DNA of 64,000 nucleotides from Saccharospirillum sp. (GTDB lineage: Bacteria > Pseudomonadota > Gammaproteobacteria > Pseudomonadales > Natronospirillaceae), in NCBI GenBank assembly GCA_022565595.1, contig JAIUML010000015.1, positions 38,167 through 102,166 of the forward strand, read 5' to 3'. Both the position numbers and the translations under genes were made by a program. How positions within the stretch are numbered: the first letter of the stretch is position 1; every line of letters starts with the position of its first letter. Positions 5,226 to 24,402 of this stretch are shown piece by piece. Below the pieces are notes generated by a model that was not told the DNA's origin, did not search any database, and saw only the letters and a list, made by a program, of their open reading frames with translations.

Positions 5226-5542
5226 TGTCGGTACCTTTTTTGTAGAATCATGGCAACTGAAAATCACCATCAAAAGATCTTGTCGTGGCCTTTCAAATAG
5301 CTCCATAAACTGCAGCAATGCTTTTTTAATGAAAAGCAGGACCTTTGCCGGGCTTATCAGGGGACAAGTTTGCTCAAGGAATAACGTCCTTATGTTTACT
5401 GCTGGTCCGCATTTTGGCCCCGCAGGAACTTCAGCAAGGCCCAAGCCGGGGGGTGGTACTAATGGCCGACCTTCTGCAGAGAGTCTGTCGCCACCTTTCT
5501 ATGAATACACCGGCCTAATAATGCAACAAAAGCAGGGGCAGA

Positions 5543-5576
5543 CAATTACCCGTTTGGGTTAGCCCAGCCCTCACCC
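5543..5576 (+). promoter_or_regulatory. putative operator, full copy 1
   Basis: CAATTACCC, GTTT, the palindrome GGGTTAGCCC, AGCC, CTCACCC. The same blocks with the same spacing recur at 13827 and 18923. It lies between divergent lipoprotein genes. Proposed, not shown, to bind the response regulator encoded at 19046. Confidence 0.6.
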
Positions 5577-5804
5577 AGAGGGCTTTACACTTCTTGTGTA
5601 ATGCGTGGGTATCTTGCTGATATTGAGTAGCATATTGTCGCTGACCCTCAAGTGAGCGATGCACAACTTTCGTTACTTGAGATCGTGAAGGTCGCGTTTA
5701 TTCGGTATGAACCTCATGCTTTTCAGGATGCTTTATGCATGCTTCTGAGCGGGCGAAAACATATTTCAGGGTAGTGCTTGTTTTATTAGATTAACCGCTG
5801 TCTT

Positions 5805-5814
5805 GGGTTAGCCT
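5805..5814 (+). promoter_or_regulatory. partial operator-like half (GGGTTAGCCT)
   Basis: Second GGGTTAGC motif in the same intergenic region, about 165 bp before the lipoprotein start at 5980. It lacks the flanking CAAT and CTCACCC blocks. The counterpart in the duplicated region is at 14096. Confidence 0.4.
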
Positions 5815-5979
5815 AAAAAGGGGATTGATTGGCAGGGGGATGTCTCGCAGTATAATCTTAAGATTATAAAAATCATCTTTCTAATATCCGAATAGTCTTA
5901 AAGAAAGCGCCGGATAAACATGCATGGCGTGGTCAAAATACTGGATGCTCCGATATCCGGAAAAAGGAAATGCGAAATC

Positions 5980-7257
5980 ATGAAACATCACCTCCCCGTT
6001 AAATTGTCGATGATGGCTATCATGATTGGCGCTCTTGTCGGTTGTGACAATGGCTCTTCAAGCTCCAACGAAAACGCGAACGTGACACCGGAAGACACAG
6101 AGCAGGAAACCGCCTCACTGCCGGAAACCAAGTGGCTGAGAGTCTACTCGGGTGACCTCTGCCCGATTGAAGGTGCGAGGGTGCTTGTGAACAACGACCA
6201 GGGGGCCCTCGTTGGCGAGCGAACCACTGATCAGGAGGGTCGCCTAGATCTTAATGACTTACCTGAAGAGGGAAGTCTGGGGGTTGTACGCAGACTGACG
6301 TTGTCGACATTTAGCGGAACCAGGACACTAACGGCCATTCAACACTACGACGTCGCCGTGCTTGGTGACGCTTCGACCATCCATTTTGCTGGTTCCGAAC
6401 CTGAGTGTGAGGAAGATTCGAATACCAATGCTGGAGCAATCACCGTGGTCATAGAGAATGCTGCGGACTTTTCCAGCTACAGATATTCCACAGGCAATAT
6501 TAATGATAGCCCACCAGACTCTCCACTGACGATTGGCCTTGAAGGGGATCAAGCCGTCATCATTGGCAATATTTCCGGTGGTGGCAGGCGCTACGCGCTG
6601 CTTGATATATCGACCCTGGAAGCCGGTGATGAAATCGAAATCTCACTTGACAAAGCGATGCGAGAGATTGATGTCACTGCCAATGCCGATGTGAATCCTG
6701 GTACAGTCAGCAATTATTGGTTCAGCGAATCGGGTCACCGCTTCAATCTGGGCAGTACGGGCTCTTTCGGTCCATCTGTGACTGTAGATACTCTGGATGA
6801 GCCGGGCAGAGTGGCGATTTACAGTCAATCTATACAAGATCCATCTCGCGTCGACGAATCCGTATTCGGTGATGCACAGACGGCTACTGAATTAGTATTT
6901 GAAGCGCGCAACAGCGATTTGCAAAGTGTCACGTTGGCGGATAATCGGTTTTACTACTGGACCTCTGTAGACCAAACCGGATTCACCCTGGGCCAGATTG
7001 ATTATGGCAACGTTGTTCATGGTTACATGGCACAGGGAGCGCCTGAGCCATTGGTAATGCCGGATGTCCCATCGGACCTATTGGTGCCTGGTGATGTAGT
7101 AGAGAATAAGTCCTTTCTTATCTATACGATGGATCCACTTGAATACTCATCATCAATGGCTGCTGCAGGGCTCAGAGTGAATGGCAATCGGGCGACTTTA
7201 ATTGGACCGGTTGATTACACTGAGGAGCGATCGGCTGTTTATAGTGCGCGGTGGTAA
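5980..7257 (+). CDS. predicted lipoprotein with carboxypeptidase-regulatory-like domain
   Basis: Lipoprotein of 425 residues. The start at 5980 (MKHHLPVKLSMMAIMIGALV, lipobox LVGC) has AAAAAGGAAA upstream; the frame's earlier ATG at 5920 would spoil the signal peptide. Residues about 55-125 (CPIEGARVLVNNDQGALVGE, then TTDQEGRLDLNDLP) resemble a carboxypeptidase-regulatory/Ig-like beta-sandwich. The rest is beta-rich with no recognised motif. The residue after the Cys is Asp, the classic inner-membrane retention signal of the Lol system, unlike the other lipoproteins here. It shares a divergent regulatory region with the gene at 3357-5225. Confidence 0.75.
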   Translation: MKHHLPVKLSMMAIMIGALVGCDNGSSSSNENANVTPEDTEQETASLPETKWLRVYSGDLCPIEGARVLVNNDQGALVGERTTDQEGRLDLNDLPEEGSLGVVRRLTLSTFSGTRTLTAIQHYDVAVLGDASTIHFAGSEPECEEDSNTNAGAITVVIENAADFSSYRYSTGNINDSPPDSPLTIGLEGDQAVIIGNISGGGRRYALLDISTLEAGDEIEISLDKAMREIDVTANADVNPGTVSNYWFSESGHRFNLGSTGSFGPSVTVDTLDEPGRVAIYSQSIQDPSRVDESVFGDAQTATELVFEARNSDLQSVTLADNRFYYWTSVDQTGFTLGQIDYGNVVHGYMAQGAPEPLVMPDVPSDLLVPGDVVENKSFLIYTMDPLEYSSSMAAAGLRVNGNRATLIGPVDYTEERSAVYSARW

Positions 7258-7463
7258 GGCTTTCTTTTCACAGCAATGGTAACCAAGCCAGAAAAACCTT
7301 ACTTGCATGCATGGATTTCAGTGGCCAGCTGTTCAATCGGCTTTACCGGCAACAGTGCTGCCGCACAAACAGGTCAGTGTTCGATCTTCCATGATGCCCA
7401 GAGTCTTGTTGAGGTGTTTTCTAGCAGTTGCGAATGGAATAGATTGAATTCATAAGGGTTGAA

Positions 7464-7483
7464 GGGGTCGTCAGAACGACCCC
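7464..7483 (-). terminator. hairpin between convergent lipoprotein genes
   Basis: GGGGTCGT / ACGACCCC stem with a 4-nt loop, immediately after the stop of the minus-strand gene at 7491. No strong T-run follows on either strand. The 7258-7490 gap holds only this and a weak 59-codon frame. Confidence 0.5.
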
Positions 7484-7490
7484 AATAGAA

Positions 7491-9065
7491 CTACGGCTCA
7501 ATACTAATCGGTAAAAAGATATTACCAGGAAAACTGACAGAGCCTGTTGCCGCACTTTCGGCTTCAAGGTTATAGAATAACTCAGTACCTTCGTTGGTAC
7601 CATCCGTTACCCATAATGCAAATCCGATACCTGAACGATCATTTCCGGAAAACAGCAAACGACCATCTGGCAGCACAAAGTGCGGTACTGGCCCACTATT
7701 TGTGGTGGAGCCACTGCCACCTGTGCCTGGGTTCAAGTCTTTGACGAGTCGAGTATTGTCGGTTGTACCGTCCGTTACCCAGAGCTCTCGGCCATGAGTG
7801 CTATCGTTCGCGACAAAATAGACGCGATCCTCTACTGCAACAAACCATTGAGGATCACTGTTATTGAAGGTTCCCGAACGAATGTCTTTCAACAAAAAGG
7901 TTCCCTCTGCAGAACCGTCCGTTACCCAGGGTTCCTGGCCATTTACGCCATCATCGGCTCGGAAGATGGCTTTACCGTCACCGATGGCCGTAATCCTGAA
8001 CGGGCTTGAGCTGTTTTCACCCGGATTGATGTCTTTGACCAGGTAGGTACCTGCTTCAGTACCATTGGTTGCCCAGAGCTCAATGCCTTCATTGGGTGTT
8101 TGGGCTCGAAACAGAATGAGTTCGTCTGAAATTTTTGTGAACTGTGCGTCAACACCTTCCCGGTTGTAATCATCTCTGATGGTCTTGACTTTATAGGTGC
8201 CTTCACTCGTACCGTCGGTTATCCATGGACCCCACTTTCCATTTTCTGCATCCTGAAAGTAGAAAATGGCTCTGCCATCATTGAGAGAGGTTAATCCTTG
8301 GGGCGATAGTCTTTCACTGTATATGACCTGTGTGCCGGCTACGGAACCATCGGTGACCATCAACCCCTGAAATTCAAACCCGGTTTCGGTATCAGGAATA
8401 AATAAACCGCTGAAAACAGCTTTACCATTCCCCAGAGGGGTTAGAAACTTTGGATCAATGTCTTCAGCGAGTACATTAGTACCCTGATCCGTGCCATCAG
8501 TCACCCAAAGGCTCCGTTTTGAGTCGCCTCCTGTGCTTCTGGCTGTAAAAACAACCTTTCCGTCATCGAGTTGGGTAAGGTTATTGGGGGAGGACCCATT
8601 GCTGTTGTAGATATTCTTTACCAGGTATGTACCAGACAATGTACCATCTGTACGGAAAAGTTCAGTTCCGGTATCGTCGTCCTCGCTGCCGGCGAAAAGG
8701 TAAACGTTTGGTGCCAATTCAACGGGCTGAGTGGCTGTAGACACGCCGCCACGGTTGCCAGCGAAGAGGTCAATCGGATAGAGCTCATTCGCGGTACTGT
8801 CTACACTGACCCAGAATTCGCTGCCGTACCCTGGTACGTTGGCTACGAAGAGAATACCCTGTGCCAGTTCAGTGTCGTCAACATTCGTGTCTGAACCGCT
8901 ATCATCATTTTCCGAATCTTCATTCCCGGGCGGCACGGTTTCCGCTTGCGTATTATCATCAGTGTCTTCTGTATCATTTGACGACGAACTGGCAGAGTCA
9001 TTGCAGCCCTGGAGTGCCAGCACGGTCGTTAGAACGAATAGAGTCGACTTTAATTTGAGTGTCAT
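7491..9065 (-). CDS. predicted lipoprotein with many ELWxxDGTxxGT repeats
   Basis: Lipoprotein of 524 residues. The start at 9065 (MTLKLKSTLFVLTTVLALQG before Cys) is supported by AGGTAGG upstream; the track's longer frame adds 12 residues. After an acidic Asp/Glu/Asn-rich linker, the body is built of about eight to nine repeats of the form ELWVTDGTxxGTxLVKDIxxG with YFVAND or IFRADD strands between them. This is the ELWxxDGTxxGT (hyalin-like) repeat family, expected to form a beta-propeller. No enzyme motif is seen. It is the last gene of a probable minus-strand operon with 9133 and 12301. Confidence 0.82.
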   Translation of the reverse strand: MTLKLKSTLFVLTTVLALQGCNDSASSSSNDTEDTDDNTQAETVPPGNEDSENDDSGSDTNVDDTELAQGILFVANVPGYGSEFWVSVDSTANELYPIDLFAGNRGGVSTATQPVELAPNVYLFAGSEDDDTGTELFRTDGTLSGTYLVKNIYNSNGSSPNNLTQLDDGKVVFTARSTGGDSKRSLWVTDGTDQGTNVLAEDIDPKFLTPLGNGKAVFSGLFIPDTETGFEFQGLMVTDGSVAGTQVIYSERLSPQGLTSLNDGRAIFYFQDAENGKWGPWITDGTSEGTYKVKTIRDDYNREGVDAQFTKISDELILFRAQTPNEGIELWATNGTEAGTYLVKDINPGENSSSPFRITAIGDGKAIFRADDGVNGQEPWVTDGSAEGTFLLKDIRSGTFNNSDPQWFVAVEDRVYFVANDSTHGRELWVTDGTTDNTRLVKDLNPGTGGSGSTTNSGPVPHFVLPDGRLLFSGNDRSGIGFALWVTDGTNEGTELFYNLEAESAATGSVSFPGNIFLPISIEP

Positions 9066-9132
9066 GCTACTACCTACCTGTTTGATTTTTAGTAAATCCA
9101 TTAGCTGAGCACCGAAAGGTGCTCATTGTTTA

Positions 9133-12100
9133 TCAGTGTCGGTTAACTGCCTGAGTATTGGTTATTACGGTTCGAGTACCCGGAGATTCACCGGTACAGT
9201 TGGTTCCTGAGAAAGCTCGGTAAAACTGCAGGGCATTATCAAACCCCAGAATTCTATCGCCATTCAATCGGCCAGAAATAATTTCAAAGCCGGTGCGGGT
9301 GCAACCACCAGGGGAGACGTCCTCAAAGCTAGCAAAGACACTGAAGCAATCCCGGTTGCCGGTTATATAAGCTCTACTGGCTATGCCTGTATCACTTTCA
9401 CTATCGTGCAGGCCCCGGTATTCGTAGTCTATGGAACCGTCGGGGTTCTGATTGTCAAACTGATATTGATAGCCGCTGATGGTGTCGTTCGGGTCCCGAG
9501 TTTCATCGTCGTCATAAACCAGGGACAGGTGGTCTGCCTGATAGGTACCACTGAGGGCAGGGGGTGTTGTTCCCGGGTGGATGCTGGCGCCCAAAGTCCG
9601 GAGTTCTTCGATCAATCCAGGGGTAAACAGCTCTGCCAGGTCTGATGGCAGGTTGACGGTATCGTTTTCGAGGTTGACCCCACAGCTACGGTTGGCATCG
9701 GTAGTCAGAATGTCAAAGCTCCGCTCGTTGCTGGTATAGCCGATGGAGCGCACACCATTGCGGTTCAAGGCGGATTTGGCAGCGTCCGAGCCGTCGCCGG
9801 CTGAGGCTGAGAGAAAGCGAACCGCAAAGGTGCCGCCTTCATCATAACTCGCAGCGCCGGCATGGACGCCAGCCCGACAGAGGTTGCTGTTTTCACGATA
9901 GAGTTCATTGCCCCAGACTTGACGGTTCAAAAAGCTGTAGGAGGCGGGCAAGGGTGGGCATTGGACGATGGCAATGCCAGGGTCGCCGAGCTCCTGGCGG
10001 ACCATGGCGCCAGTCGTTACCCAATCGATATCGAGAGGGTTGTCCAGTGGAATGCGACCGCCCAACGCCATCAGGCCTGGATCAAAAGTACCCTGACGAA
10101 TGCGTTCGGCCAGTTGAGCGCTGCGCGCGGTGGCGGCAAAGTCTGGCTCGCCTGTGAATCCGACATCGAAGACGCAGTTGTTGAACTCGACGCTGGGGTT
10201 GGTTACTCCTGCCGCCTCGCAGACGGCTTCGGCAAAGGCCCTTTCTTCTGTTGCAAGATCATCAATGGTGCGTCGAAATTCGGGAAAGGCTGGATCGGTA
10301 AAACTGGCAGTGTTTTCACCAGGTGCATAATCAAACAATGAGGTGGCATCGGTGATGCGCCAACTGTCGATGAAGTCATCGTATAAGGCGTCGAGGTTGT
10401 CAGGATCAATGGCCGCGTCCGAACTCCGCGGGGTGAAGTCGTCCATTGGGTTATCGCTGACTCTACCCAGCAGGCCTCGAGTATCGGGCAACAACTGTAC
10501 GTTCTCAATGTCCGGTAAATCGACATAGACATTCAGGAACTGTCTAGACGGGTATTGAACAATGGAAATCAGGTGGTCTCGCCCGGCGATCTGAAGAGTG
10601 TTCCCGACCAGAGAGATTTGCGCATCGGCTTGTTCAATCGGATAGCGCCCGAGCAATAACGGGTCGATGATCTCGCCATTAATGCGAATGCGCTCAGCCC
10701 AGGGGGCTTGCTGTGTGAAGGTGACCCGCGTATCACCCAATTGCACGGCGGCGGCTACGGCGGCCGAGGCGTTATCCAGATTGCGCCAGGGCTGCGTGCG
10801 AATCTGAACCTCCATGTCAGTGTTCTTTGCCAGGGTGAACTCACCCACGGCCATCATGTCGTACTTGCTACCGTCGAAAGTGGTCATGTGCGGGTCCCCG
10901 TTGTTTTCGCCACAACGCGGAGTCACACAGAGAGGGCGCCGACGTCGGTTGTTCTCGTTAGGGAGCCCGTAGTTTGGCGGTGGTGGTTTGGGCGTCATGT
11001 TCTCCAGCGCCTGGTCGAAGCTGCTCTTCGCCCCCTGACCAAACTCCTTGAAGAAGTCGGCAACGCATTGGTTGCCAAAGTTGCACCCTTCAAGGCCATC
11101 TTTCATGCCGTCGATCATGTCGCTGGCCTTCGCAGGCACCATGCCTTTGGTACTGCCCTCGCGTGCTACGCCGAGCTGGTTGGTGTAAAGCAGTACTTCT
11201 GGTCCGTCGAGTCGCTCTAGTCCAAAAAAGCTGATCTGGTTGGCTGCCATGCGCGCCTGTAATAAGGCGATGCCGTCTTCAGTGTCCGGATCCTGTTGCG
11301 ACGGAGCGCCCTGAGCGAAGGCGTAATCGACCAGCAAGGCATCGCCAGGCGCCAGGACGGAGGCATCGAGGAAGGTCAAATCAATACTCAATTCATCGTC
11401 AAAGGAAATGCCGCGGTTAGCGTCTGCGCGTGGGGTGGCCAGCACTGCCACTGCAGTCTTGCCATTATACTCCAGTAATCCAGCGACAAGTTCGATGTCG
11501 GTACGAGGTTGCAAGTCGGCGGAACCTGACTGAGGTTGCAGTAACTCTGGCTGCAACACCGTTGACAGAGGCGTAAAGTTAACACCCTCCATCAATTCGA
11601 TGCGGTCTTCAGGAAAAACCAGGGTCGCCAGATGGTTAATAATGGCATTTGTTATGTTTTTCTCTGCGTCGTGCGGGCTAAGGCGTCGCCAGCGCTCAAA
11701 AATCCAGAAATCCTGAGTGTGCCCAAGGGCTTCGAGATTTTCTGTTGTGAAGCGCCATTCAGCCGCAGTCTCGAGGGAGGTTCCTGCTTCACTGGCAAGG
11801 CCCGACAAAACCCTTGCCTCGTAGGTGGTGTCAGGTTGGAGAAGGGTTGATGGTGTGAACCGAAGTGTCTGCCCGTCTTCAGTTAAGGCCAGGCTTCCAT
11901 TGACTGCATCACTTTGATCTTCCGGGCTCAGCACAAAGCTGTATTCACCGTTAAGCATGCTGGCATCGATGGGCTGATCAAAATTGGCTTCTACTGATGT
12001 GTCAAGTCGCACACTGGTCTCGTTGTTGTTGGGTACAACGGACAGCAACTCAAGCTGGGAGCTGCTTTGATCGATTTCAGACTCGTTGTCTGAATTGCCC

Positions 12101-12177
12101 GGTCCGCCACAGGCAGAGAGCAACGCACCAATTAAGAGGGAGAACGAGACTTTAAGGAAAGGGCTACTGTGATTCAT
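9133..12177 (-). CDS. large predicted lipoprotein with Big_5-like and von Willebrand factor type D domains
   Basis: Lipoprotein of 1014 residues. The start at 12177 gives MNHSSPFLKVSFSLLIGALL with lipobox LSAC; the longer frame has no signal. Residues about 35-150 resemble a bacterial Ig-like Big_5 domain (DTSVEANFDQPIDAS, then AEWRFTT). Residues about 425-590 are a VWD domain: GENNGDPHMTTFDGSKYDMM, then GEFTLAKN and the paired beta strands usual in mucin and vWF D domains. VWD domains mediate assembly and binding in secreted eukaryotic proteins and occur in some bacterial surface proteins. Many cysteines lie in the C-terminal third, so disulfides are likely. The gene start is 67 bp after 13230's gene and 31 bp before 9065's, so an operon is likely. 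Confidence 0.8.
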   Translation of the reverse strand: MNHSSPFLKVSFSLLIGALLSACGGPGNSDNESEIDQSSSQLELLSVVPNNNETSVRLDTSVEANFDQPIDASMLNGEYSFVLSPEDQSDAVNGSLALTEDGQTLRFTPSTLLQPDTTYEARVLSGLASEAGTSLETAAEWRFTTENLEALGHTQDFWIFERWRRLSPHDAEKNITNAIINHLATLVFPEDRIELMEGVNFTPLSTVLQPELLQPQSGSADLQPRTDIELVAGLLEYNGKTAVAVLATPRADANRGISFDDELSIDLTFLDASVLAPGDALLVDYAFAQGAPSQQDPDTEDGIALLQARMAANQISFFGLERLDGPEVLLYTNQLGVAREGSTKGMVPAKASDMIDGMKDGLEGCNFGNQCVADFFKEFGQGAKSSFDQALENMTPKPPPPNYGLPNENNRRRRPLCVTPRCGENNGDPHMTTFDGSKYDMMAVGEFTLAKNTDMEVQIRTQPWRNLDNASAAVAAAVQLGDTRVTFTQQAPWAERIRINGEIIDPLLLGRYPIEQADAQISLVGNTLQIAGRDHLISIVQYPSRQFLNVYVDLPDIENVQLLPDTRGLLGRVSDNPMDDFTPRSSDAAIDPDNLDALYDDFIDSWRITDATSLFDYAPGENTASFTDPAFPEFRRTIDDLATEERAFAEAVCEAAGVTNPSVEFNNCVFDVGFTGEPDFAATARSAQLAERIRQGTFDPGLMALGGRIPLDNPLDIDWVTTGAMVRQELGDPGIAIVQCPPLPASYSFLNRQVWGNELYRENSNLCRAGVHAGAASYDEGGTFAVRFLSASAGDGSDAAKSALNRNGVRSIGYTSNERSFDILTTDANRSCGVNLENDTVNLPSDLAELFTPGLIEELRTLGASIHPGTTPPALSGTYQADHLSLVYDDDETRDPNDTISGYQYQFDNQNPDGSIDYEYRGLHDSESDTGIASRAYITGNRDCFSVFASFEDVSPGGCTRTGFEIISGRLNGDRILGFDNALQFYRAFSGTNCTGESPGTRTVITNTQAVNRH

Positions 12178-12300
12178 TGTTTTACTCAGATCTTGAAGTG
12201 ACGCCGGATAATTTTTGTCAGCGTTGTAGAGCAAGCATCCATGCTTGCGGAATAGTCATCCGAGACGGCTATAAGGCGTGCTTATTGAATGACGATTGGA

Positions 12301-13230
12301 TCAAGCCCGTGGATCGAAGGCAGAGTCCGAGTAGGACTCGGGTGTTTCATCATTAAACTGAATATCAACGCCCGATTGCTTGAACTGAATCGTCAAGGTA
12401 TTGCCATCAGCCCCTTCAATGATCAACTGTCCAGTCGTTGGAGAGTCCAAACGGTTGATACCATTGGTGCTAGCGGTTAAGGTGCCGTTGTCTTCTTCAT
12501 TGGTGTATTCATCTTCAAAATATAGGTTGCCAGAGAAAAATGCAGATGCTGGCGTGCGCTCGAGTTCAACGTCGTCATAGCGGGTTGATCCAAATTCTCC
12601 CTCAACCGTGACATTAATATTGCTGATGCGGTAGTCACTATCGCTGTTGTATTCGTAAGTGAGTTCACCGCGATACTGTGTTCCGGTTCCATAGTCGAAG
12701 AATAAACCCACGATCCAGCCTTCGTTGTACTCAGTGGAATAAGGTTCCAGGCTTAGGGTACCGTCCATGTGACGATTGTTTCCGAAGTAGGTGGTCCAGC
12801 GGCAATCATCGTAGGTGAAAAGGAAACCACCTTCTTCTGTCTCTGAGCGAATCACATCGCCGGAAGATGGGCACAAAGATGCCAGTGAGTCTCCTTCGGC
12901 CAAAGTGGCATCCGGGCTTTGTGTTGTGTAGTCATTGTGCAAACGAGCAAGATTGGCCAGAAGGTAGGCGTCACGATCATCGGTAGTTGTCCCCCATGAC
13001 CCAAGATCATTCCAGTACATCCTCCGATAGACAAATTGAGCGATAAACAGTTTATTGTCTTTAGTGATGGCGCGCAGCTGGTCAGAGGGTGTTTGACCTC
13101 CGGTATTCTGATCATCGCCTGTACTGTGGTCATCACCACTGCTTCCTTCGCTGTCACTGTTGCAAGCTGTCAACAGCAGTACTGCGCTGGTGAGTAGTAT
13201 CAACCCTTTACTGTGAATGGACTTGTTCAT
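12301..13230 (-). CDS. predicted lipoprotein, unknown function
   Basis: 309-residue lipoprotein: MNKSIHSKGLILLTSAVLLL then lipobox LTAC, a Ser/Asp/Gly linker, and a beta-rich body (GTLSLEPYSTEYNEGWIVGL, RGELTYEYNSDSDYRISN) without a known motif. Two cysteines (LCPSSGD and YDDCRW) may pair. AAGGAAAG lies upstream of the ATG. It appears to be the first gene of the minus-strand lipoprotein operon, and its upstream region carries a partial operator at 13432. I recognise no family; the body resembles small outer-membrane sandwich proteins only in general character. Confidence 0.72.
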   Translation of the reverse strand: MNKSIHSKGLILLTSAVLLLTACNSDSEGSSGDDHSTGDDQNTGGQTPSDQLRAITKDNKLFIAQFVYRRMYWNDLGSWGTTTDDRDAYLLANLARLHNDYTTQSPDATLAEGDSLASLCPSSGDVIRSETEEGGFLFTYDDCRWTTYFGNNRHMDGTLSLEPYSTEYNEGWIVGLFFDYGTGTQYRGELTYEYNSDSDYRISNINVTVEGEFGSTRYDDVELERTPASAFFSGNLYFEDEYTNEEDNGTLTASTNGINRLDSPTTGQLIIEGADGNTLTIQFKQSGVDIQFNDETPESYSDSAFDPRA

Positions 13231-13431
13231 CGATTCTTTCCTTCTATAGATTTTAATTGTAGAGACTGCAAATTTTGTTCAAATCCTTTGCGCAATTGAT
13301 TGAAACAAACAGAGCCACCTATGGTTCAGGTTTTTCCGGCAGTGAATGGGTGCTGGTTCGGAACTGAAGGCAGCAAATTAGGCCGCCAGGTCCAAGACTA
13401 CTCCATGGAACCCTATTACACGTCCATGACG

Positions 13432-13454
13432 CAATCCCTTGTTTGGGTTAGCCG
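13432..13454 (+). promoter_or_regulatory. putative operator, left part only
   Basis: CAATCCCTT, GTTT, GGGTTAGCCG: the left block and palindrome align without gaps to the full copies, but the CTCACCC block is missing. The sequence changes at about 13455 to the relic lipoprotein signal peptide. It lies upstream of the minus-strand operon starting at 13230. Confidence 0.5.
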
Positions 13455-13510
13455 ATTTCAAGAGCCAGGGTCAGTAATAGTGCGATGATCATGCACGGGT
13501 CTAACGTCAT
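13448..13510 (-). pseudogene. relic of a lipoprotein signal peptide
   Basis: A 20-codon frame, MTLDPCMIIALLLTLALEIG then stop, matches the first residues of the lipoprotein at 5225 (MTLDPRMIIALLLTLTLAAC) and stops being similar just before the lipobox cysteine. The ribosome site region is also conserved. This is the leftover start of a paralogous gene whose body was deleted; the junction lies at about 13455, next to a partial operator. Confidence 0.8.
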
Positions 13511-13826
13511 TGTCGGTACCTTCTCTATTTTCGAATCATGGCAACTGAGAATCGCCATCAAAAACTTTCCGTTGCCTTCTAAATTGCCTTATAAAATTCG
13601 GCAATGCTTTTTTGAGAGAAAAAGCACTTTTACCCGGCTACTGAAGGGAAATGTTTGTTCAAGGAGTAACGCCCTGTTGTTGACTGCTGGTATGCATTGT
13701 GACTCGACATGGGCTTCTCAAAGACCCAAGCAAGGGGCATTGCTCATGGCCGGCTATTTAGAGAGCGCCGATCACCACTATCCATTAAATTTACCAGCCT
13801 AATAATGCAACAAAAGCGGGGTCATA

Positions 13827-13860
13827 CAATTACCCATTCGGGTTAGCCCTGGCCTCACCC
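13827..13860 (+). promoter_or_regulatory. putative operator, full copy 2
   Basis: CAATTACCC, ATTC, GGGTTAGCCC, TGGC, CTCACCC, with spacing identical to the copies at 5543 and 18923. It lies between the minus-strand lipoprotein operon and the plus-strand lipoprotein gene at 14215. Confidence 0.6.
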
Positions 13861-14095
13861 ACACTCACGCAGAGGCCAGTACTTTTGTTGTGTAATGCCT
13901 TAGCAATCTTGCTGAAACCGGTGAGCCTGGGTGCTGCACATCCAGCGAGCGGTATACCACTTTCGTTATTTTATATTGTGAAAACTGCGTTTATTCGGTA
14001 TGAATCTCATGTTTAACCGGAATTTCCATGGTTTCTTTTAATGAGGTAGGAATATATCAGGTCGCTGCTTGTTCGAATAGATTAAACTTTGCTAT

Positions 14096-14105
14096 GGGTT
14101 AGCTT
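14096..14105 (+). promoter_or_regulatory. partial operator-like half (GGGTTAGCTT)
   Basis: GGGTTAGC followed by TT, about 110 bp upstream of the lipoprotein start at 14215; homologous to the one at 5805. Flanking blocks are absent. Confidence 0.35.
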
Positions 14106-14214
14106 AAATGGATGATTGAGAAGGGAGGTTATATGGCGTTATATAAAGGAGTTCTCTCAATGCCTTTTTTACAGAGGCATCTCCCCTGAAATAACTCTGA
14201 CAAATGACAGCAAA

Positions 14215-15417
14215 ATGAGCGCTCAATCTCCCCTTTTTTGGGCCACCTTGCTTTGTGTATCCAGCCTGACATTGTCTGGCTGTAACAGCAGTAGCGACGG
14301 TGGCGCCGCCTCAAACGATCCGCCCACAGGAAATGGTAACGGTAACGGCGATGGTAATGGAGGCGGTAGCGGTGACGGCAATAACGACGGTGATGGCGGT
14401 GGTGATAGTGGCACCCTCAGTGTTGTTCGAACCTATCCAACAGATGGTGCGACCCTGGTGCCCCTGAATGCCATCATTCGCGCCGAACTGAATAATGATA
14501 TTAACGAGTCGTTTCAGGATGAGTTGATCAAGCTTTACCAGGGCGCGTTGGAAGTGTCGGGCCAGGGCCGGAGTACCGATTTACCCTATAATGAGATCCG
14601 CTTTACCCCAGCAAGCCCGCTAGAAAAAGACACCGAATACAGTGTTACGCTCTTTGCCGACCTGGAAGACAATGAGTTCAATGAGCTCGGTGTGAATTAC
14701 AACTGGACCTTTCGAACGCTGGCGAAAGACTGGACGACAGAATCCTCCTTAACGGCCGATCTTGAAGCCGCTTATCTCAGTCGTGGTGAAAACAACAGCA
14801 GAACAGGTGATCGTTATGATGGTCCCGAAATCGCGATGAATGTGCAGGGTGACGCCGTTGTCGCATGGTCCAGTGTTTTAAGCCTTGACTCTGGTGTGAT
14901 AGAGACAGACCTTGTTGTTCGGCTTTTTGATTCAAGTACCGGACAGTGGTCGTCTCCGGAGGTATTGGGTCGGCATGAGTTTCGGGATAGTGGTGACGGT
15001 GGGGCTTATCGCCCTGGCATCGCGATCAACGCAGGTGGTGACATCCTGGTTGCGTACCCAAGCAATAACGAGACTGGCCAGTCCATGATCGTTTATCAAT
15101 GGGATGGTGTTGATTGGAGTGATACAATCATCGCAACAGATAGTATTGAATCAACATTTGATGCTAATGGTTACTACCGGTCGGCGCGTGTGGCTCTGGA
15201 TGATAGCGGCTCTGCAGCTGTCGTTTGGGGGCAGCGATTGGATACGTTGGACTCACTAGACGATTCTACGTCTCCTTTTATTTGGGCGTCACACTTTGAT
15301 GAGGCGTCAGGTGAGTGGGACGATGATCCGACTGGCCTCAGTCTCGCCATGAGACATGGTGGCACACCAGGCAGTAGTACAGGTCAATCCGCTTTGTACT
15401 TCAGGTTGCTTGAATAA
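14215..15417 (+). CDS. predicted lipoprotein with Big_5-like domain
   Basis: 400-residue lipoprotein. The start at 14215 (MSAQSPLFWATLLCVSSLTL, lipobox LSGC) was chosen for the signal peptide; the ribosome site is weak. A Gly/Asn/Asp-rich linker of about 45 residues follows, then a Big_5-like Ig domain (about residues 75-170: RTYPTDGATLVPLNAIIRAE to YNWTFRTL). The C-terminal half has repeats of the form 'IAMNVQGDAVVAW', 'IAINAGGDILVAY' and 'VALDDSGSAAVVW', typical of propeller-type repeats. The propeller looks short (about three repeats), so the protein may be truncated relative to relatives, but no broken frame is visible. It converges on the gene at 15471 with a shared hairpin. Confidence 0.75.
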   Translation: MSAQSPLFWATLLCVSSLTLSGCNSSSDGGAASNDPPTGNGNGNGDGNGGGSGDGNNDGDGGGDSGTLSVVRTYPTDGATLVPLNAIIRAELNNDINESFQDELIKLYQGALEVSGQGRSTDLPYNEIRFTPASPLEKDTEYSVTLFADLEDNEFNELGVNYNWTFRTLAKDWTTESSLTADLEAAYLSRGENNSRTGDRYDGPEIAMNVQGDAVVAWSSVLSLDSGVIETDLVVRLFDSSTGQWSSPEVLGRHEFRDSGDGGAYRPGIAINAGGDILVAYPSNNETGQSMIVYQWDGVDWSDTIIATDSIESTFDANGYYRSARVALDDSGSAAVVWGQRLDTLDSLDDSTSPFIWASHFDEASGEWDDDPTGLSLAMRHGGTPGSSTGQSALYFRLLE

Positions 15418-15427
15418 AGGAAGCTTC

Positions 15428-15454
15428 GACGCTGGTATCTTTGGTACCAGCGTC
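15428..15454. terminator. bidirectional hairpin between convergent lipoprotein genes
   Basis: GACGCTGGTA / TACCAGCGTC, a perfect 10-bp stem with a 7-nt loop, located between the stops of the genes ending at 15417 and 15471. The stem can be extended on both sides by CTTCGA-like pairs. No long T-run. Confidence 0.6.
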
Positions 15455-15470
15455 AGTTCGAAGGAATCTA

Positions 15471-16640
15471 TCAGTCTGACTCGCGAGCCAGAATGGTTAC
15501 ACGATTACCGACAGCGATGACGTTGTCGGCATTCAGGGCATGGACACCTCTCAAGGCCGTATTCTCGTTGAAGCCAGTCGGCAAGTCCGTCACGCTTTCT
15601 TCGTACCAGGTGATACCACCATTTTCTGTGTAGAAGATTTTGGCGACTGCGTTGTCGGACCCTATGCCATTACCAACCAGCCAGCCACGTTGCGCATCGA
15701 CAAAGGCCATATCATAGATATTCATGCCACCGTCCTGGAAAGCCAGACTCCATGTCAAACCCCCATCCGTAGTTCTCATTACTCTGGAAACGCCAGCAAG
15801 GTAGCCATGATTGTTGTCGACGAATTGAACGAGATCAAAGCGGTCAGCATAAGGGCCGATTTGCTCGTAAACACCTGTTTTCCCTGTCTGCCAGTTCACA
15901 CCACCATCGGTGGTGTAATAGTAGCTGTCGTTGGTCTCGTCTTCTGTGTCTCGGCCTACAGCCCAGCCGTTCATGGTGTCAACAAAGGAGACACTCAGAA
16001 AGGGAAGCCCATTGCCAAAGTCGAATGCGACTTTGTTCCAGGTGTTGCCACCATCGGTGGTGTGCAGGATAAAGCGGTCACTTTCCTCGACAGTGAGGGC
16101 ATTGTGGCCGCCTGCTATCCATCCATGAGTAGCACTGACGAACTCGATATCGAAAAACGTGCCTTCATCGGAGATTGGGTGGCTTTGTTCGCTCCAGGTT
16201 GCTCCCGCATTTTGCGTTCGTAGTATCATGGGAGGATTACCCGATGAGAGTCCGCCGACAATCCAGCCATTGTTTTCATCCACAAAGTGGACGCCGGTAA
16301 GCCTGTTCCAATAGTCGTTGACATACTGCGTCCAGGTGCCGCCACCATCCGTAGATTTTAAAATGAGGGCACCGATTCCTCCGAACTCGCTGGGTGTTCC
16401 CTGTCCCACTGCCCAGAGGGTATTCTTATCGAGCTGAAAGATGCTGTAGAGTGAAGAGGTTGGTGTCTTGTCTGCATCGATTAGCGTCCAGCTTCTGACA
16501 TCGGCGTCGGGAGTCGTTCCGTTTCCATTGTCTGTATCCGATGGATCCGTACTACTGCTTGAACTATTGCAGCCTGACAGAAGTACAGCCGCCGCTGTCA
16601 GAATAGAAAGAAATGCGGGTTTTACATAGTGGGTGTTCAT
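15471..16640 (-). CDS. predicted lipoprotein with Ycf48/BNR-type propeller repeats
   Basis: 389-residue lipoprotein: MNTHYVKPAFLSILTAAAVL, lipobox LSGC, Ser-rich linker. The body has repeated units 'FVDENNGWIVGG', 'FVSATHGWIAGG', 'FVDTMNGWAVGR', 'FVDAQRGWLVGN', each followed by ILRTxNGGxTW-like Asp-box motifs (STDGGGTW, TTDGGNTW, TTDGGLTW, TENGGITW). This is the pattern of the Ycf48/HCF136-like and sialidase Asp-box propellers. No sialidase catalytic residues are evident. GGAGAAAC precedes the ATG. Related in design to the next gene at 16763. Confidence 0.82.
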   Translation of the reverse strand: MNTHYVKPAFLSILTAAAVLLSGCNSSSSSTDPSDTDNGNGTTPDADVRSWTLIDADKTPTSSLYSIFQLDKNTLWAVGQGTPSEFGGIGALILKSTDGGGTWTQYVNDYWNRLTGVHFVDENNGWIVGGLSSGNPPMILRTQNAGATWSEQSHPISDEGTFFDIEFVSATHGWIAGGHNALTVEESDRFILHTTDGGNTWNKVAFDFGNGLPFLSVSFVDTMNGWAVGRDTEDETNDSYYYTTDGGVNWQTGKTGVYEQIGPYADRFDLVQFVDNNHGYLAGVSRVMRTTDGGLTWSLAFQDGGMNIYDMAFVDAQRGWLVGNGIGSDNAVAKIFYTENGGITWYEESVTDLPTGFNENTALRGVHALNADNVIAVGNRVTILARESD

Positions 16641-16697
16641 GATTGATGTTTCTCCATGAGTATTGAGATAAGGATCAGTTGTACTCTTTACATCAAA

Positions 16698-16730
16698 ACC
16701 GCCTGAAAGGAGGTTTCCTGTTCAGGCGGT
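16698..16730 (-). terminator. rho-independent terminator of the 16763-18733 gene
   Basis: ACCGCCTGAA / TTCAGGCGGT, a perfect 10-bp stem; on the minus strand it is followed by TTTTG. It separates this gene from the downstream lipoprotein gene at 16640. Confidence 0.75.
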
Positions 16731-16762
16731 ATGGTTTGACAGCAAGGTTCAACCCTTTATCA

Positions 16763-18733
16763 CTACTGCATTTGTACTTTGAGAATGTGGTTACCCTCGC
16801 CAAGCAAGTAAAGCGTGTCATCTTTTCTCGCCAGCCCTCTCAAGGGGTGACTCAATTCATAGGCTTGCCAGGATTCGCCGTTGTCGCTTACCCAGAGTGT
16901 GTTGCGGCCATCGTCTTTCAAGTAGAACCTTTCACCATCGTTAAAAATATTGCTGGCGGTGACGACTGCTTCCTCAGGGAATTCGGAAGCAGACCACGTT
17001 AAACCACCGTCAGTACTGTAAGCCGTGCGACTGTGAGATGTTGTAGGCGCAGCTGCGACAACCTTGTTGCCAATAGAAGAAAGCCGTACAAAGCCCATAT
17101 TGGTCGTATTTATGGCACGTTGAGACGTCGTCCATTCGTCGCCATCCGAGCTGAGTCTTGCCCAACCGCCAAAGCTGATGACGAGGTAGCCGTTATCTGT
17201 GGCGACCAGGCTTCTGGAGGCATCGGGCGCCTCATCGAGGGTGCAGCCGGAGGGTGTGCAGATGGCAAGAACATCATTTGCGAGATTGTTGCCAACCATG
17301 GCCATCCAGACGTCATTTCGACCCGCTACATGAGAGAAGAAAACATTGAGTCCTCCAGTTCGAGGATCTACTACAGACCAACTCTCTCCGTCCAGGCTGT
17401 GGGCTACGGTGTTAGTGCCACTGGCAACAAAACGTGTTCCCGTCCAGGCGATGTCGGTAAGGTAGGGCGAACCAGTGAGCGTGACTTCACTCCAGTCGGT
17501 ACCGTTATCACTGTAGACGGCGCGACCATTCTCACTGATAGCAACCATCCGGCCCAAGTCGTCTTTCGCCATTTTTTGCCAGCCGTTGGCGGTGAGCGTC
17601 GTTTCGCTGTCTGTGCTCCAACTAGTGCCATTGGTAGAGGAGACGATAGCGCCATTGTTGCCCACAGCAAAAAAGCCTTTGGAGGTGTGGGTAATGTCAT
17701 TGAGCGCATCGGAGTTTACGGTGGTGACGCGCTCCCAGGTGGCCTCGTCCCCGGCTCTCTTGTGGATAGAGCCTTTATTGTCCGCAAACCAGTATGAGCT
17801 ATCAGTAAACGTCAGGGAGTTCAGGATGGCACTGCCTTGAGCCGGGCCCGCGAGTGCGAAAGCGTAGTTGAAGTCAACACCTGTATCGCTCCAGCTCTTT
17901 CCTATTGTGCTAGAGCGGAAACCGTACTGGTTGTAGCCGCCCGATACAGCAAACTGAGAACCATTGAAATGGACATCGGTTACATTCGAATTGACACCCG
18001 ACGTTATCGACACCTCACGGTTCCAGGTGGCTCCTCCGTCTTCACTCAGGTGGATTTCATGGCCATTGCCGGTTACCAATCTTGCACCGTTGGAGGCGAC
18101 GCTTGACGTGGCCCGCGAGGGACCAGCGTTTACCTTGGTCCATACTTTGCCATCCGTACTGCTGATGTGGGCATTGCTTTGAGCGCCCAGTGCGATGAAA
18201 TGGTTGCCTGTCCAGGTAACGGCATTCAAGCCGCCGACATCGTCAGGTAGAGTCGCACTTTCCCAGCTGTTTCCGTCGTCTTCACTGAAAAAGGCTCTGG
18301 CTCCAGAATTGGGGTTGTTTCCACCACCGACAGCGACCAGCGTGGGTCCATTGCTGACGATGTCTCTCAAGGTGGTTGAAGCGGTTTCTGCAGTCGTCCA
18401 ATTACTGCCGTCTGAAGATATCAGCACAGTGCCACGGGCACCAACTGCTACCAGTTTATGATTGTGCTCAATGACAGCATTGAGCGAGTAACCTTGAGGC
18501 AGTGGATGTATCCAGGTTGCGGCAAGGATTGTGCTGCCGTCTTCGTTGTCCTGGTTCCCTGTATCGTTGTCCGTCTGGCCATTATCGGTGTCGGTATGGC
18601 CGTTGTCTTGTGAGCCATCACCAGTGCCTGTTCCGCTATTGTTTTCGCCACCACTGCTGCTGTTGCATCCCGCCAGTGTTAAAGCACTACAAAGTAAGAT
18701 GTAGAGAGGTAAAGAAGATCGTTTAGAGGTCAT
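16763..18733 (-). CDS. predicted lipoprotein with BNR/Asp-box-like propeller repeats
   Basis: 656-residue lipoprotein. The ATG at 18733 was preferred over 18742 because AAGGG is then 9 bp upstream. The signal peptide ends in lipobox LAGC, followed by a 45-residue Asp/Gly/Thr/Asn linker. The body contains many units of the type 'LVAVGARGTVLISSDGSNW', 'FFAVGNNGAIVSSTNGTSW', 'RMVAISENGRAVYSDNGTDW', which indicate one or two beta-propellers. No catalytic motif. It is divergent from the response regulator gene and shares its upstream region, including a full operator-like element, which suggests co-regulation. Confidence 0.82.
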   Translation of the reverse strand: MTSKRSSLPLYILLCSALTLAGCNSSSGGENNSGTGTGDGSQDNGHTDTDNGQTDNDTGNQDNEDGSTILAATWIHPLPQGYSLNAVIEHNHKLVAVGARGTVLISSDGSNWTTAETASTTLRDIVSNGPTLVAVGGGNNPNSGARAFFSEDDGNSWESATLPDDVGGLNAVTWTGNHFIALGAQSNAHISSTDGKVWTKVNAGPSRATSSVASNGARLVTGNGHEIHLSEDGGATWNREVSITSGVNSNVTDVHFNGSQFAVSGGYNQYGFRSSTIGKSWSDTGVDFNYAFALAGPAQGSAILNSLTFTDSSYWFADNKGSIHKRAGDEATWERVTTVNSDALNDITHTSKGFFAVGNNGAIVSSTNGTSWSTDSETTLTANGWQKMAKDDLGRMVAISENGRAVYSDNGTDWSEVTLTGSPYLTDIAWTGTRFVASGTNTVAHSLDGESWSVVDPRTGGLNVFFSHVAGRNDVWMAMVGNNLANDVLAICTPSGCTLDEAPDASRSLVATDNGYLVISFGGWARLSSDGDEWTTSQRAINTTNMGFVRLSSIGNKVVAAAPTTSHSRTAYSTDGGLTWSASEFPEEAVVTASNIFNDGERFYLKDDGRNTLWVSDNGESWQAYELSHPLRGLARKDDTLYLLGEGNHILKVQMQ

Positions 18734-18922
18734 TCTGGTCATCCCTTGCTAGTAATGAATACAATCAGATTCTTGCTTTCCATAGTTTTCAGTTATGAGA
18801 TGGCAAAATAATCTGAATTATTGTGCTGAATCGGTATCAGAACGCAGCTTATCTGGCTTGGCATGAGGCGCTGGACTCGATTAACTGGTACAGCTATGTA
18901 ATGCTATTCTCACTACTTCAGG

Positions 18923-18956
18923 CAATCACCCCTTTGGGCTAACCCTTCTCTCACCC
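18923..18956 (+). promoter_or_regulatory. putative operator, full copy 3
   Basis: CAATCACCC, CTTT, GGGCTAACCC, TTCT, CTCACCC. The palindrome is the exact reverse complement of the other two, and block spacing is identical. Outside this element the 18734-19045 region does not resemble the two duplicated regions, so conservation here is informative. It lies 90 bp before the response regulator start. Confidence 0.65.
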
Positions 18957-19045
18957 CCAATATGTTATTGTTATCAACAGCAGGTGTGAGATAGATTCTG
19001 TTAAAGTTGTCAGCGAACGTAATTCTCGATTATCAGGAGCCTGGA

Positions 19046-19696
19046 ATGCAGAAAGTATTTATTGTCGAAGACCATCTGGAAACCAGGGAATGGCTGGTGT
19101 CGATCGTAAAAGAGTCTTTTGATAACCCGGACATCGCCGAAGCAGGTACCGTAGAGAAGAGCTATCGTTGGTTGGAGCAGAACACCCCTTCGTTAACACT
19201 GGTAGATCTAAGCCTGCCCGATGGTAACGGCCTTGACCTGATCAAGTACTTAAATGAGCATTTCCCGGAAAATTACATCGTTGTTACTACCATCTTCGAT
19301 GACGATCGCCATTTGTTTAACGCCTTGCGCGCTGGTGCCAGCGGTTACTTGTTGAAGGATCAGCCGCGCCGCTCCATGGTCGAGAGCCTGTCCGGCATCA
19401 TGTCCGGTAAGCCGCCGCTCAGTCCGGCCATTGCTCGGCGCATGCTGAGGCATTTTCAGCAGGATAGTGGTGCGAGCAAGGAAACGCCGTTGTCAGAGCG
19501 TGAGGCCGAGGTTTTAACCTTGCTGGCAAAGGGCATGGGTCGTAATGATATTGCAGACTTGTTGGAGGTTTCTGTTAATACGGCCGCCAGCCATATCAAA
19601 TCGATCTATCGCAAACTGAATGTATCCGGAAGAGCAGAGGCGACTCTGCAGGCGGTCAAGATGGGTCTGGTATCGAGCAATATAAAAAATAGATGA
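19046..19696 (+). CDS. NarL/FixJ-type response regulator
   Basis: Cytoplasmic two-component response regulator of 216 residues. The start at 19046 has AGGAGCCTGGA upstream; the longer frame begins without a ribosome site. The receiver domain has the acidic pair in IVEDH, phosphoacceptor Asp54 (LVDLSLPDG), the Thr of VVTTIF and Lys of YLLKDQ. Residues about 148-210 are a LuxR-type helix-turn-helix (LSEREAEVLTLLAKGMGRND, then ASHIKSIYRKLNVSGRAEA). It overlaps the kinase gene by 4 bp (ATGA), so the two are translationally coupled. Likely targets are the neighbouring lipoprotein promoters carrying the shared element, including its own. Confidence 0.93.
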   Translation: MQKVFIVEDHLETREWLVSIVKESFDNPDIAEAGTVEKSYRWLEQNTPSLTLVDLSLPDGNGLDLIKYLNEHFPENYIVVTTIFDDDRHLFNALRAGASGYLLKDQPRRSMVESLSGIMSGKPPLSPAIARRMLRHFQQDSGASKETPLSEREAEVLTLLAKGMGRNDIADLLEVSVNTAASHIKSIYRKLNVSGRAEATLQAVKMGLVSSNIKNR

Positions 19697-23084: not shown

Positions 23085-24068
23085 TTACTGTGATTTCTTC
23101 AACAGGTTATGTTTGCGCAGCAGGTTACGCAATTGGTGATAACTGAGCCCCAGACTTTGCGCAGTCTGGCCCTGGTGGTGCCCGTTTGCGTCCAGCGCTT
23201 GTTGTAACAGTTCCACTTCCTTTTTGGCCATGACGTCGTTGAACTGCAGAGGCAGGTCGATGTTCGAATGCCCTAGTTTGGCAGTTTGCCAGGAGGTTTC
23301 GAACGGATCCAGTATCACCTCATCGATAGGGGTGTCGGCTCTGGCCCAACGATAGACGCTGCGCTCTACCGTATTCTTCAGTTCCCGAACATTGCCGTAG
23401 AAGGGGTGGCTCTTTAGTTTATTCAGGGCCTTCTCGGTAAAGCCAGGAAACCAGTCCCAACCCAGCTCGCTGCTCATGGCAATGGCAAAGTGCTCCGCCA
23501 GGATGCGGATGTCTTCCTGTCGTTCGCGTAGTGGCGGCACGGCCAGTACATCAAACGACAGACGGTCGAGCAGGTCGGCGCGGAAGCGATCCTGGTCGAC
23601 CAGGGCAGGCAAGTTTTCATGGGTAGCGGCGACGATGCGCACATCCACCTGCATCGGTGCCTGGCCGCCCAGGCGCTCGAATTCGCCATATTCGATCACC
23701 CGCAGCAGTTTCTCCTGTACCTGGGCCGACATGTTGCCGACTTCGTCGAGAAAGAGGGTGCCTTCGTGGGCACGCTCGAAGCGCCCCTTGTGCAAACGAT
23801 TGGCGCCGGTGAAGGCGCCCGGTTCATAGCCGAAAAGATCCGCATCGAGCAGGGTGTCGCTCAGTGCACCGCAGTTCACCTTGAGGAAAGGGTTTTGCCA
23901 GCGCGGTGAGAGGAAGTGCAGGCGCTGAGCGATCAGTTCCTTGCCGGTGCCTCGTTCACCCATGACCAGAATCGGGCGGTTCAAAGCGGCCGCCCGTGAG
24001 GTGTGGTCGAGCAATTCTGATAGGGCCGGGCTTTCGCCGATCAGCCTTTGGCTGGAGGATTCAGTCAT
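23085..24068 (-). CDS. pspF: psp operon sigma-54 activator PspF
   Basis: 327-residue bacterial enhancer-binding protein lacking an N-terminal receiver domain, as PspF does. Walker A GERGTGKE at 37-44, sigma-54 contact loop GAFTGA at 84-89, Walker B GTLFLDE at about 103-109, and a C-terminal Fis-type HTH (GQTAQSLGLSYHQLRNLLRK). It drives the divergent psp operon and is held inactive by PspA until membrane stress. The 160-bp divergent region carries matching activator sites. Confidence 0.93.
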   Translation of the reverse strand: MTESSSQRLIGESPALSELLDHTSRAAALNRPILVMGERGTGKELIAQRLHFLSPRWQNPFLKVNCGALSDTLLDADLFGYEPGAFTGANRLHKGRFERAHEGTLFLDEVGNMSAQVQEKLLRVIEYGEFERLGGQAPMQVDVRIVAATHENLPALVDQDRFRADLLDRLSFDVLAVPPLRERQEDIRILAEHFAIAMSSELGWDWFPGFTEKALNKLKSHPFYGNVRELKNTVERSVYRWARADTPIDEVILDPFETSWQTAKLGHSNIDLPLQFNDVMAKKEVELLQQALDANGHHQGQTAQSLGLSYHQLRNLLRKHNLLKKSQ

Positions 24069-24077
24069 GACTCGTAA

Positions 24078-24117
24078 TTTAGCAAAAAATGCTAAATAAA
24101 ATAGTGCTAATTGCTAA
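24078..24117 (+). promoter_or_regulatory. putative PspF upstream activating sites
   Basis: Two AT-rich sites: TTTAGCAAAAAATGCTAAA (24078-24096) and TAGTGCTAATTGCTAA (24102-24117). The second strongly resembles the E. coli PspF site style (TAGTG, AATT, GCTAA). They lie about 65-100 bp upstream of the proposed sigma-54 promoter and overlap the pspF promoter region, consistent with autoregulation. Confidence 0.65.
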
Positions 24118-24179
24118 AAATTACTCCTGACTCAGGGTTCCTTTTAAAAAAAACGATAAAAATCAAGGCGTTAAAGACC

Positions 24180-24197
24180 TGGCACAGTTCGTGGATT
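24180..24197 (+). promoter_or_regulatory. putative sigma-54 promoter of the psp operon
   Basis: TGGCAC at the -24 position, with a degenerate -12 element (GTGGATT). Placed about 35-50 bp upstream of the first gene, downstream of the PspF sites. The -12 match is imperfect. Confidence 0.55.
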
Positions 24198-24230
24198 AGC
24201 TGTCGTAGAACCATCAACAAGGAGCATGAA

Positions 24231-24386: not shown

Positions 24387-24402
24387 TTGAAGGAGAGCCG
24401 TC

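What the first reader, a model, noticed from the sequence alone, without database searches (positions are those of the whole stretch)
5543..18956. A 34-bp element shared by lipoprotein promoters and the neighbouring two-component promoter
CAATYACCC, 4 nt, GGGYTARCCC, 4 nt, CTCACCC occurs at 5543-5576, 13827-13860 and 18923-18956 with exactly the same spacing; a left-half copy is at 13432 and weaker GGGTTAGC motifs at 5805 and 14096. The first two regions are duplicates, but 18734-19045 is otherwise unrelated, so conservation there points to function. The central 10-mer is a palindrome, as expected for a LuxR-type dimer. The adjacent NarL-type regulator is the obvious candidate binder, which would make the lipoproteins and the regulator one autoregulated regulon.
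Basis: partly seen in the sequence, partly recalled or inferred. Interest (0 to 1): 0.78.

Follow-up and report, generated by a model that had tools for sequence, protein, structure and literature searches.

The report
Two-component switch for lipoprotein genes
A short DNA signal recurs in front of lipoprotein genes and of one two-component regulator gene in several genera of related bacteria, and it is likely the landing site by which that regulator would turn on a predicted set of cell-surface proteins.

Summary
The 34-bp element is at the three stated places, with no other match at up to 3 mismatches in the 4.77-Mb genome. A 23-bp core (CAATYACCC-N4-GGGYTARCCC) also covers 13432 and, on the minus strand, 5805 and 14096. 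Genome-wide it marks a regulon: a profile gave 34 matches in ten genomes, 28 before lipoprotein genes and 6 before the regulator gene, including 13 of 13 that had not trained it. Nine of these ten genomes hold a regulator orthologue (61% identity or more), one (G001) a 52% relative. Three orthologue genomes had no profile match. In 390 genomes of the order, two without the orthologue had one match each, inside genes. New: on the opposite strand CAAT reads ATTG, the start of a -35 box with a -10-like hexamer 17 nt on, so the element is predicted to be a directional class II activator site. Autoregulation is better supported in sister genomes than here, where the element points at the divergent lipoprotein gene. 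Paralogous systems carry a diverged operator. Binding, activation, signal and surface exposure are untested.

The parts
5543..5576 (+). element W1; core 5543-5565; points (ATTG side) at the minus-strand lipoprotein gene that starts at 5225
5805..5827 (-). core site; points at the lipoprotein gene that starts at 5980; TATAAT lies 20 nt after TTGATT (16 nt after an overlapping TTGGCA, by eye)
13432..13454 (+). core site; points at the lipoprotein gene that starts at 13230; -10-like hexamer weak
13827..13860 (+). element W2, in the duplicated stretch; points at the gene at 13230 from 596 nt, possibly a remnant of the copied promoter
14096..14118 (-). core site; points at the lipoprotein gene that starts at 14215; TTGAGA 14116-14121, TTATAT 14139-14144
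18923..18956 (+). element W3, 189 nt before the divergent lipoprotein gene (18733), at which it points, and 100 nt (from the core) before the regulator gene (19046)
19046..19696 (+). NarL-type response regulator, 216 aa (Response_reg, GerE): proposed binder
19693..21882 (+). cognate histidine kinase, 729 aa (HisKA_3, HATPase_c weak), membrane helices and a beta-rich domain predicted
3357..5225 (-). lipoprotein gene (one weak ELWxxDGT match below cut-off)
5980..7257 (+). lipoprotein gene, no family
7491..9101 (-). ELWxxDGT-repeat lipoprotein frame (5 repeats), behind 9133-12234
9133..12234 (-). lipoprotein frame with Big_5, VWD and LCCL domains, behind 12301-13230
12301..13230 (-). lipoprotein gene, no family
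14215..15417 (+). lipoprotein gene with Big_5 domain
15471..16640 (-). lipoprotein frame with Ycf48/BNR repeats, behind 16763-18733
16763..18733 (-). lipoprotein gene with DUF6242 and sortilin-like repeats

Best explanation
The element is likely the operator of the neighbouring NarL-type response regulator (19046-19696), which is predicted to switch on lipoprotein genes: its 23-bp core, CAATYACCC-N4-GGGYTARCCC, stands before lipoprotein genes and beside the regulator gene in the window, before lipoprotein genes elsewhere in the same genome, and before both kinds of gene in other genera. Shown by sequence: the conserved core and spacing, its near confinement to genomes with the regulator, its neighbours, and a -10-like hexamer 17 nt beyond TTGNNN on the ATTG side. 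Inferred: the kinase (19693-21882) senses an envelope signal and phosphorylates the regulator; regulator dimers bind the inverted CCC-N4-GGG half-sites centred near -43, touching the -35 box, and recruit RNA polymerase (class II activation). Further half-sites upstream, such as GGGTGAG (the complement of CTCACCC), would hold a second dimer. The regulator gene would be autoregulated.
For: Matrix without window sites ranks the six window places first; with sites of G359 alone the five best window places are five of the six. 34 of 34 profile matches in ten genomes are lipoprotein (28) or regulator (6) promoters. Untrained matches: 13 of 13. Element before the regulator gene in G010, G016 (rearranged, by eye), G359 and, with the unchanged matrix, in 5 of 8 further orthologues. 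Nearly absent before regulators below 55% identity and from 390 genomes of the order. Peak of -10-like hexamers at spacer 17. Paralogous regulators have a related, diverged operator.
Against: No binding, expression or start-site data. Three genomes with an orthologue (G412, G466, G516) have no profile match; G466 and G516 have only a weak matrix site before the regulator (5.5). G001, whose regulator is only 52% identical, has two matches, while G003 and G020 with 53% and 50% have none. In the own genome, G010 and G412 the element points away from the regulator gene. Single profile E-values are modest (0.002-0.98); the weight lies in the neighbours. Own C6 and G556 C38:5232 lack a -10-like hexamer at 15-19 nt.
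Confidence: 0.75

Rival explanations
1. The element is the regulator's operator, but the regulator represses the lipoprotein genes, since the site touches the -35 box.
For: The core overlaps the predicted -35 box and can lie 39-62 nt from the start codon.
Against: The -10 and -35 hexamers are mostly weak, as expected for activated promoters; the half-sites lie upstream of the spacer, not over it.
Confidence: 0.15
2. Another, unlinked DNA-binding protein recognises the element; the neighbouring two-component system is only a co-regulated target.
For: The element occurs before the regulator as before any other target; binding was not tested.
Against: It tracks this regulator across 390 genomes of the order and 16 chosen genomes, and paralogous regulators have a changed operator in their own clusters. 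Presence of other regulators was not compared.
Confidence: 0.07
3. The shared sequence is only a trace of duplication, a mobile repeat or an RNA structure.
For: W1 and W2 lie in duplicated DNA.
Against: W3 shares little beyond the element; the core stands before different lipoproteins on other contigs and in other families, in both orientations to genes.
Confidence: 0.03

Closest known systems
ComA operator of Bacillus subtilis (LuxR/NarL-type response regulator)
   Same: Inverted repeat bound by a dimer (RE1, RE2) followed by further elements in direct repeat (RE3, RE4) (PMC3980184, whole text); here ACCC-N4-GGG followed by CTCACCC. The ComA box sequence with a 4-nt spacer is recalled, from no call.
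   Different: Other half-site sequence, other targets; here a -35 box is conserved with the operator and the targets are lipoprotein genes. Relation of the two proteins was not tested.
CrbR and its ACTU motif (Pseudomonas fluorescens acetate utilisation)
   Same: LuxR-family response regulator; imperfect inverted repeat in target promoters, missing in genomes without the system (PMC5715377, passages). Listed sites such as TACGACTAAAGTCTAAA show GAC-N4-GTC by eye, the same geometry.
   Different: Other half-site sequence; targets are acetate genes; its binding link was shown by experiment.
NreC of Staphylococcus carnosus
   Same: NarL-type regulator that binds a GC-rich palindrome (passages of PMC8139620 and PMC5694512).
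   Different: Targets are nitrate respiration genes; its exact sequence was not seen here.
NCBIfam response regulators (MadR, NarL, MctR, GacA and others)
   Same: Same domain plan.
   Different: All far below their curated cut-offs (best MadR, 125.9 bits against 300).

Membership tests
NarL/FixJ-type two-component system | Receiver domain plus GerE (LuxR-type) HTH | tested here: met
   Response_reg 67.1 bits, GerE 56.1 bits, both above cut-off
NarL/FixJ-type two-component system | Adjacent HisKA_3-type histidine kinase | tested here: met
   (HisKA_3 23.4 against cut-off 24, HATPase_c 22.7 against 26.4, both just below); DesK-like core; frames overlap
NarL/FixJ-type two-component system | Inverted half-sites in target promoters | tested here: met
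NarL/FixJ-type two-component system | Phosphorylation-dependent DNA binding | not testable with these tools
   needs protein work
Class II activator site | Site overlaps or touches the -35 box | tested here: met
   by sequence only, with a -10 matrix recalled from memory; starts not mapped
ComA-type operator | Inverted repeat plus further elements in direct repeat | tested here: inconclusive
   CTCACCC follows at 4 nt in W1-W3, but is shifted, inverted or missing at other sites (by eye)
MadR/NarL/MctR equivalogs of NCBIfam | Score above the curated cut-off | tested here: not met
   125.9/300, 107.2/250, 107.1/300

The most novel reading that the evidence does not exclude
This is one member of an undescribed family of envelope-sensing two-component systems, each copy paired with its own diverged operator, that control whole repertoires of surface lipoproteins (propellers, Ig-like, VWD/LCCL, Calx-beta) as a switchable cell coat; operator and regulator co-diverge, giving a natural series for reading the DNA-recognition code of NarL-type regulators.
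Probability: 0.4. Interest if true: 0.78.

Novelty: new variant of a known kind. Interest (0 to 1): 0.66.

Why it matters
It gives a handle on large lipoprotein families that have domain names but no known role: they would be expressed together, under one sensor. The operator predicts promoters with direction and position, so targets, transcription starts and signal can be tested together. A lipoprotein regulon kept in three families of the order, with paralogous systems whose operator and targets differ, would be a useful model of how two-component systems diversify.

Tried and rejected
The central 10-mer as the operator: rejected, it is rarer than its reversed control (14 against 24). CAAT as part of a half-site only: revised after the -10 spacing test. 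The element as a feature of the whole regulator superfamily: rejected; in the 350 bp before regulators below 55% identity only L008/L015 (10.5, one place), L127 (12.3) and L051 (12.2) exceed the 99% null of 9.8; 80 named loci had no simple form of the motif near the expected strand except a few G+C-rich chance matches. Three matches that I first read as misses because a longer spurious frame hid the gene (L236, L238, L239) are lipoprotein promoters. Core-pattern matches that are not lipoprotein or regulator promoters in the system's genomes: own C7:107225, G010 C1:1119158 and C1:3035973, 3 of 16; none is a profile match. The random-position null (0 of 9000) used nine 20-kb stretches only and is weak. 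With the 8-site G359 matrix, 4 of 10 control stretches had a match at 13 or more, two of them at 17.3 and 18.3, the latter the paralogue operator in L128, so the 17.9 of site 13432 is not decisive in that test. Literature: searches showed no paper on this regulon in the held library, but I saw listings only (10 of 16 papers, 8 of 75).
Full report
OBSERVATION. The 34-bp pattern is at 5543, 13827 and 18923 exactly, with no match in 100 shuffles. In the 4.77-Mb genome these are the only matches at up to 3 mismatches; the other 193 of 194 genomes searched have none. The two lipoprotein promoter regions are duplicates (70% over 618 bp). Against 18734-19045 the best match of each is the element itself (38 and 37 bp); the second also has one 41-bp match at 76%. 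The central 10-mer alone is not informative (14 in the genome, reversed control 24).

CORE. Twenty-one sites from five genomes (own 8, G359 8, G010 3, G016 1, G001 1) align without a gap over 23 columns, about 26 bits. Several were found with patterns that did not ask for CAAT, so CAAT is an independent confirmation at those. A matrix from the 15 non-window sites finds six places in the window (13827, 5543, 18923, 5805 minus, 13432, 14096 minus) at 18.7-30.2, and nothing else reaches 9; the best score in 50 shuffles was at most 19.0. A matrix from the 8 sites of G359 alone has 18923, 13827, 5543, 5805 and 13432 as its five best places in the window (25.1-17.9; only five were printed); four of ten control stretches had a match at 13 or more, the best 18.3.

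WHO BINDS. The regulator (216 aa, Response_reg and GerE) and the kinase (729 aa) follow W3. Kinase relatives in the family: 6 of 22 genomes, own included, the closest G010 (55%) and G016 (52%); in 390 genomes of the order 38 match at E <= 1e-60, the closest new one G359 (49%, another family). The element lies before the regulator gene in G010, twice in G359 and, rearranged and below the matrix threshold, in G016 (by eye). Eight further orthologues (61-69% by tblastn) came from family f19 (4 of 163 genomes) and G359's family f43 (4 new ones; 9 of 46 genomes match at this threshold, G359 and four genomes with only a more distant relative included). With the unchanged matrix, 5 of 8 have a site before the gene (32.8, 30.8, 27.5, 18.9, 17.9), two a weak one (5.5), one none; in that last genome (G474) the only profile match stands before a lipoprotein gene that is followed, in the same direction, by the regulator gene. 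Of six more distant regulators in the same call one passes 9.8 (L232, 12.3). Regulators below 55% identity mostly lack it. The HTH stretch NTAASHIKSIYRKLNVSGR is shared by the own, G010, G016 and G359 proteins.

REGULON. Profile R1 on ten genomes gave 24 matches at E <= 1: own 9, G359 8, G010 3, G001 2, G016 1, and one in G197 inside a frame; G003, G020, G375 and G099 had none. On 16 genomes that had not trained it it gave 11 matches, all in 5 of the 8 with an orthologue (G412, G466 and G516 had none), and none in the 8 without. An automatic rule (signal peptide with lipobox, start within 450 bp) marks 19 of 23 and 7 of 11. The other four of 23 are W2 and 14096, whose lipoprotein at 14215 the rule misses, and two regulator promoters of G359; the other four of 11 are regulator promoters. 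So 28 lipoprotein and 6 regulator sites of 34; two of the 28 (own W3, G010) also lie before the regulator gene. Untrained matches: 13 of 13 (the 11, own C1:187528 and G001 C73:3581). Genomes without a close system: 0 of 26 loci pass the rule (23 of 27 core-pattern matches, those given loci, and three profile matches, in G197, G222 and G349). Fisher p is 4.9e-10 for 26 of 34 against 0 of 26, but the two sets come partly from different searches and sites of one promoter are not independent. Like with like, core-pattern matches are lipoprotein or regulator promoters in 13 of 16 cases in own, G010, G016, G359 and G001. In the own genome three targets lie outside the cluster: C1:103596 (at least 460 aa, propeller repeats), C1:187528 (at least 460 aa) and C6:32165 (2274 aa, Calx-beta). 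Over 390 genomes of the order, scored with stricter filters, five match at E <= 0.05: own 6, G359 7, G010 2, and one each, inside frames, in G222 and G349.

DIRECTION. On the other strand each core ends in ATTG. In 33 sites (G001 C73 and the rearranged G016 regulator site left out) the mean score for a -10 matrix recalled from memory peaks at a spacer of exactly 17 nt after TTGNNN: 12 of 33 above 2 bits, 9 at spacer 18, 0-5 at each other spacer from 0 to 39; the far side has no such peak. In 30 sites after dropping three near-duplicates, xAxxxT at spacer 17 occurs 12 times; the maximum over spacers in 2000 shuffles was 9. So CAAT is, at least in part, a -35 box, and the inverted half-sites ACCC-N4-GGG would be centred near -43. 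In the window every lipoprotein transcription unit has a site that points at it: W1 to 5225, 5805 to 5980, 13432 to 13230 (with 9133-12234 and 7491-9101 behind), 14096 to 14215, W3 to 18733 (with 15471-16640 behind). W2 points at 13230 from 596 nt. The -10 match is weak at 13432 and shifted at 5805. The own regulator gene has W3 100 nt upstream, but W3 points away, as do the elements of G010 and G412. Elements point at the regulator gene in G359, G556, G559 and G561, and a matrix-only site does in G560.

PARALOGUES. Kinase-regulator pairs at lower identity also stand beside lipoprotein genes in G001, G020, G375, G099, G197 and G217, not in G003. In G197, G375 and G099 the regulator promoter has CAATCCCNCAAAYGGGNNCCC, the pattern I derived from them. 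A search of 20 genomes at up to 2 mismatches gave ten places: these three; a second exact one in G197 before an exported protein and a lipoprotein of the same cluster; one in G217 before a lipoprotein gene beside its kinase; four inside frames and one unclear (G003). This suggests, but does not prove, that operator and regulator diverge together.

SENSOR. The kinase model has mean pLDDT 73.4 and pTM 0.47: one membrane helix, a beta-rich domain (about 45-142) that by eye resembles a PDZ domain (not confirmed), several membrane helices and a kinase core whose best Foldseek matches are a bacteriophytochrome and DesK. The signal is unknown. Surface exposure of the lipoproteins is inferred from their repeat domains and Ser/Gly/Asn-rich tethers.

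NAMES. Contig lengths suggest that G001 is Saccharospirillum impatiens (142,618) and G197 Alloalcanivorax dieselolei B5 (4,928,223), and G375 Alcanivorax sp. 24 (269,493); the window is then probably a Saccharospirillum relative. This is inference.

LITERATURE. ComA (PMC3980184, whole text) and CrbR (PMC5715377, passages) are the nearest operator designs; NreC passages in PMC8139620 and PMC5694512., of which I saw listings, show no paper on this regulon in the held library; subscription journals are mostly missing from it.

Noticed in passing
window 23085-26392: Genes that by eye look like the phage-shock set (PspF-, PspA- and PspC-like; recalled, no family search) lie just beyond the two-component genes.
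   Followed up: no
window 13511-14119: A 70% copy of 5226-5828 that contains both core sites; it begins where the lipoprotein gene of the other copy starts, so the copied gene itself is missing.
   Followed up: partly
L124 and L234, L235, L242: In Isoalcanivorax-like genomes a small exported protein gene (DUF3617-like by eye) is divergent from the regulator, with a core site pointing at it in G359 and G560: a possible non-lipoprotein target.
   Followed up: partly
L167:4335-11156: The own C6 site precedes a 2274-aa lipoprotein with a Calx-beta domain.
   Followed up: partly
G359:C1:111577-115932 and G197:C1:902093-906638: Two related kinase genes lie in tandem beside one regulator gene.
   Followed up: no
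window 3357-5225: The lipoprotein starts after its cysteine with an uninterrupted Asn-Gly repeat tether, (NG)n, followed by an Asp-Pro repeat.
   Followed up: no
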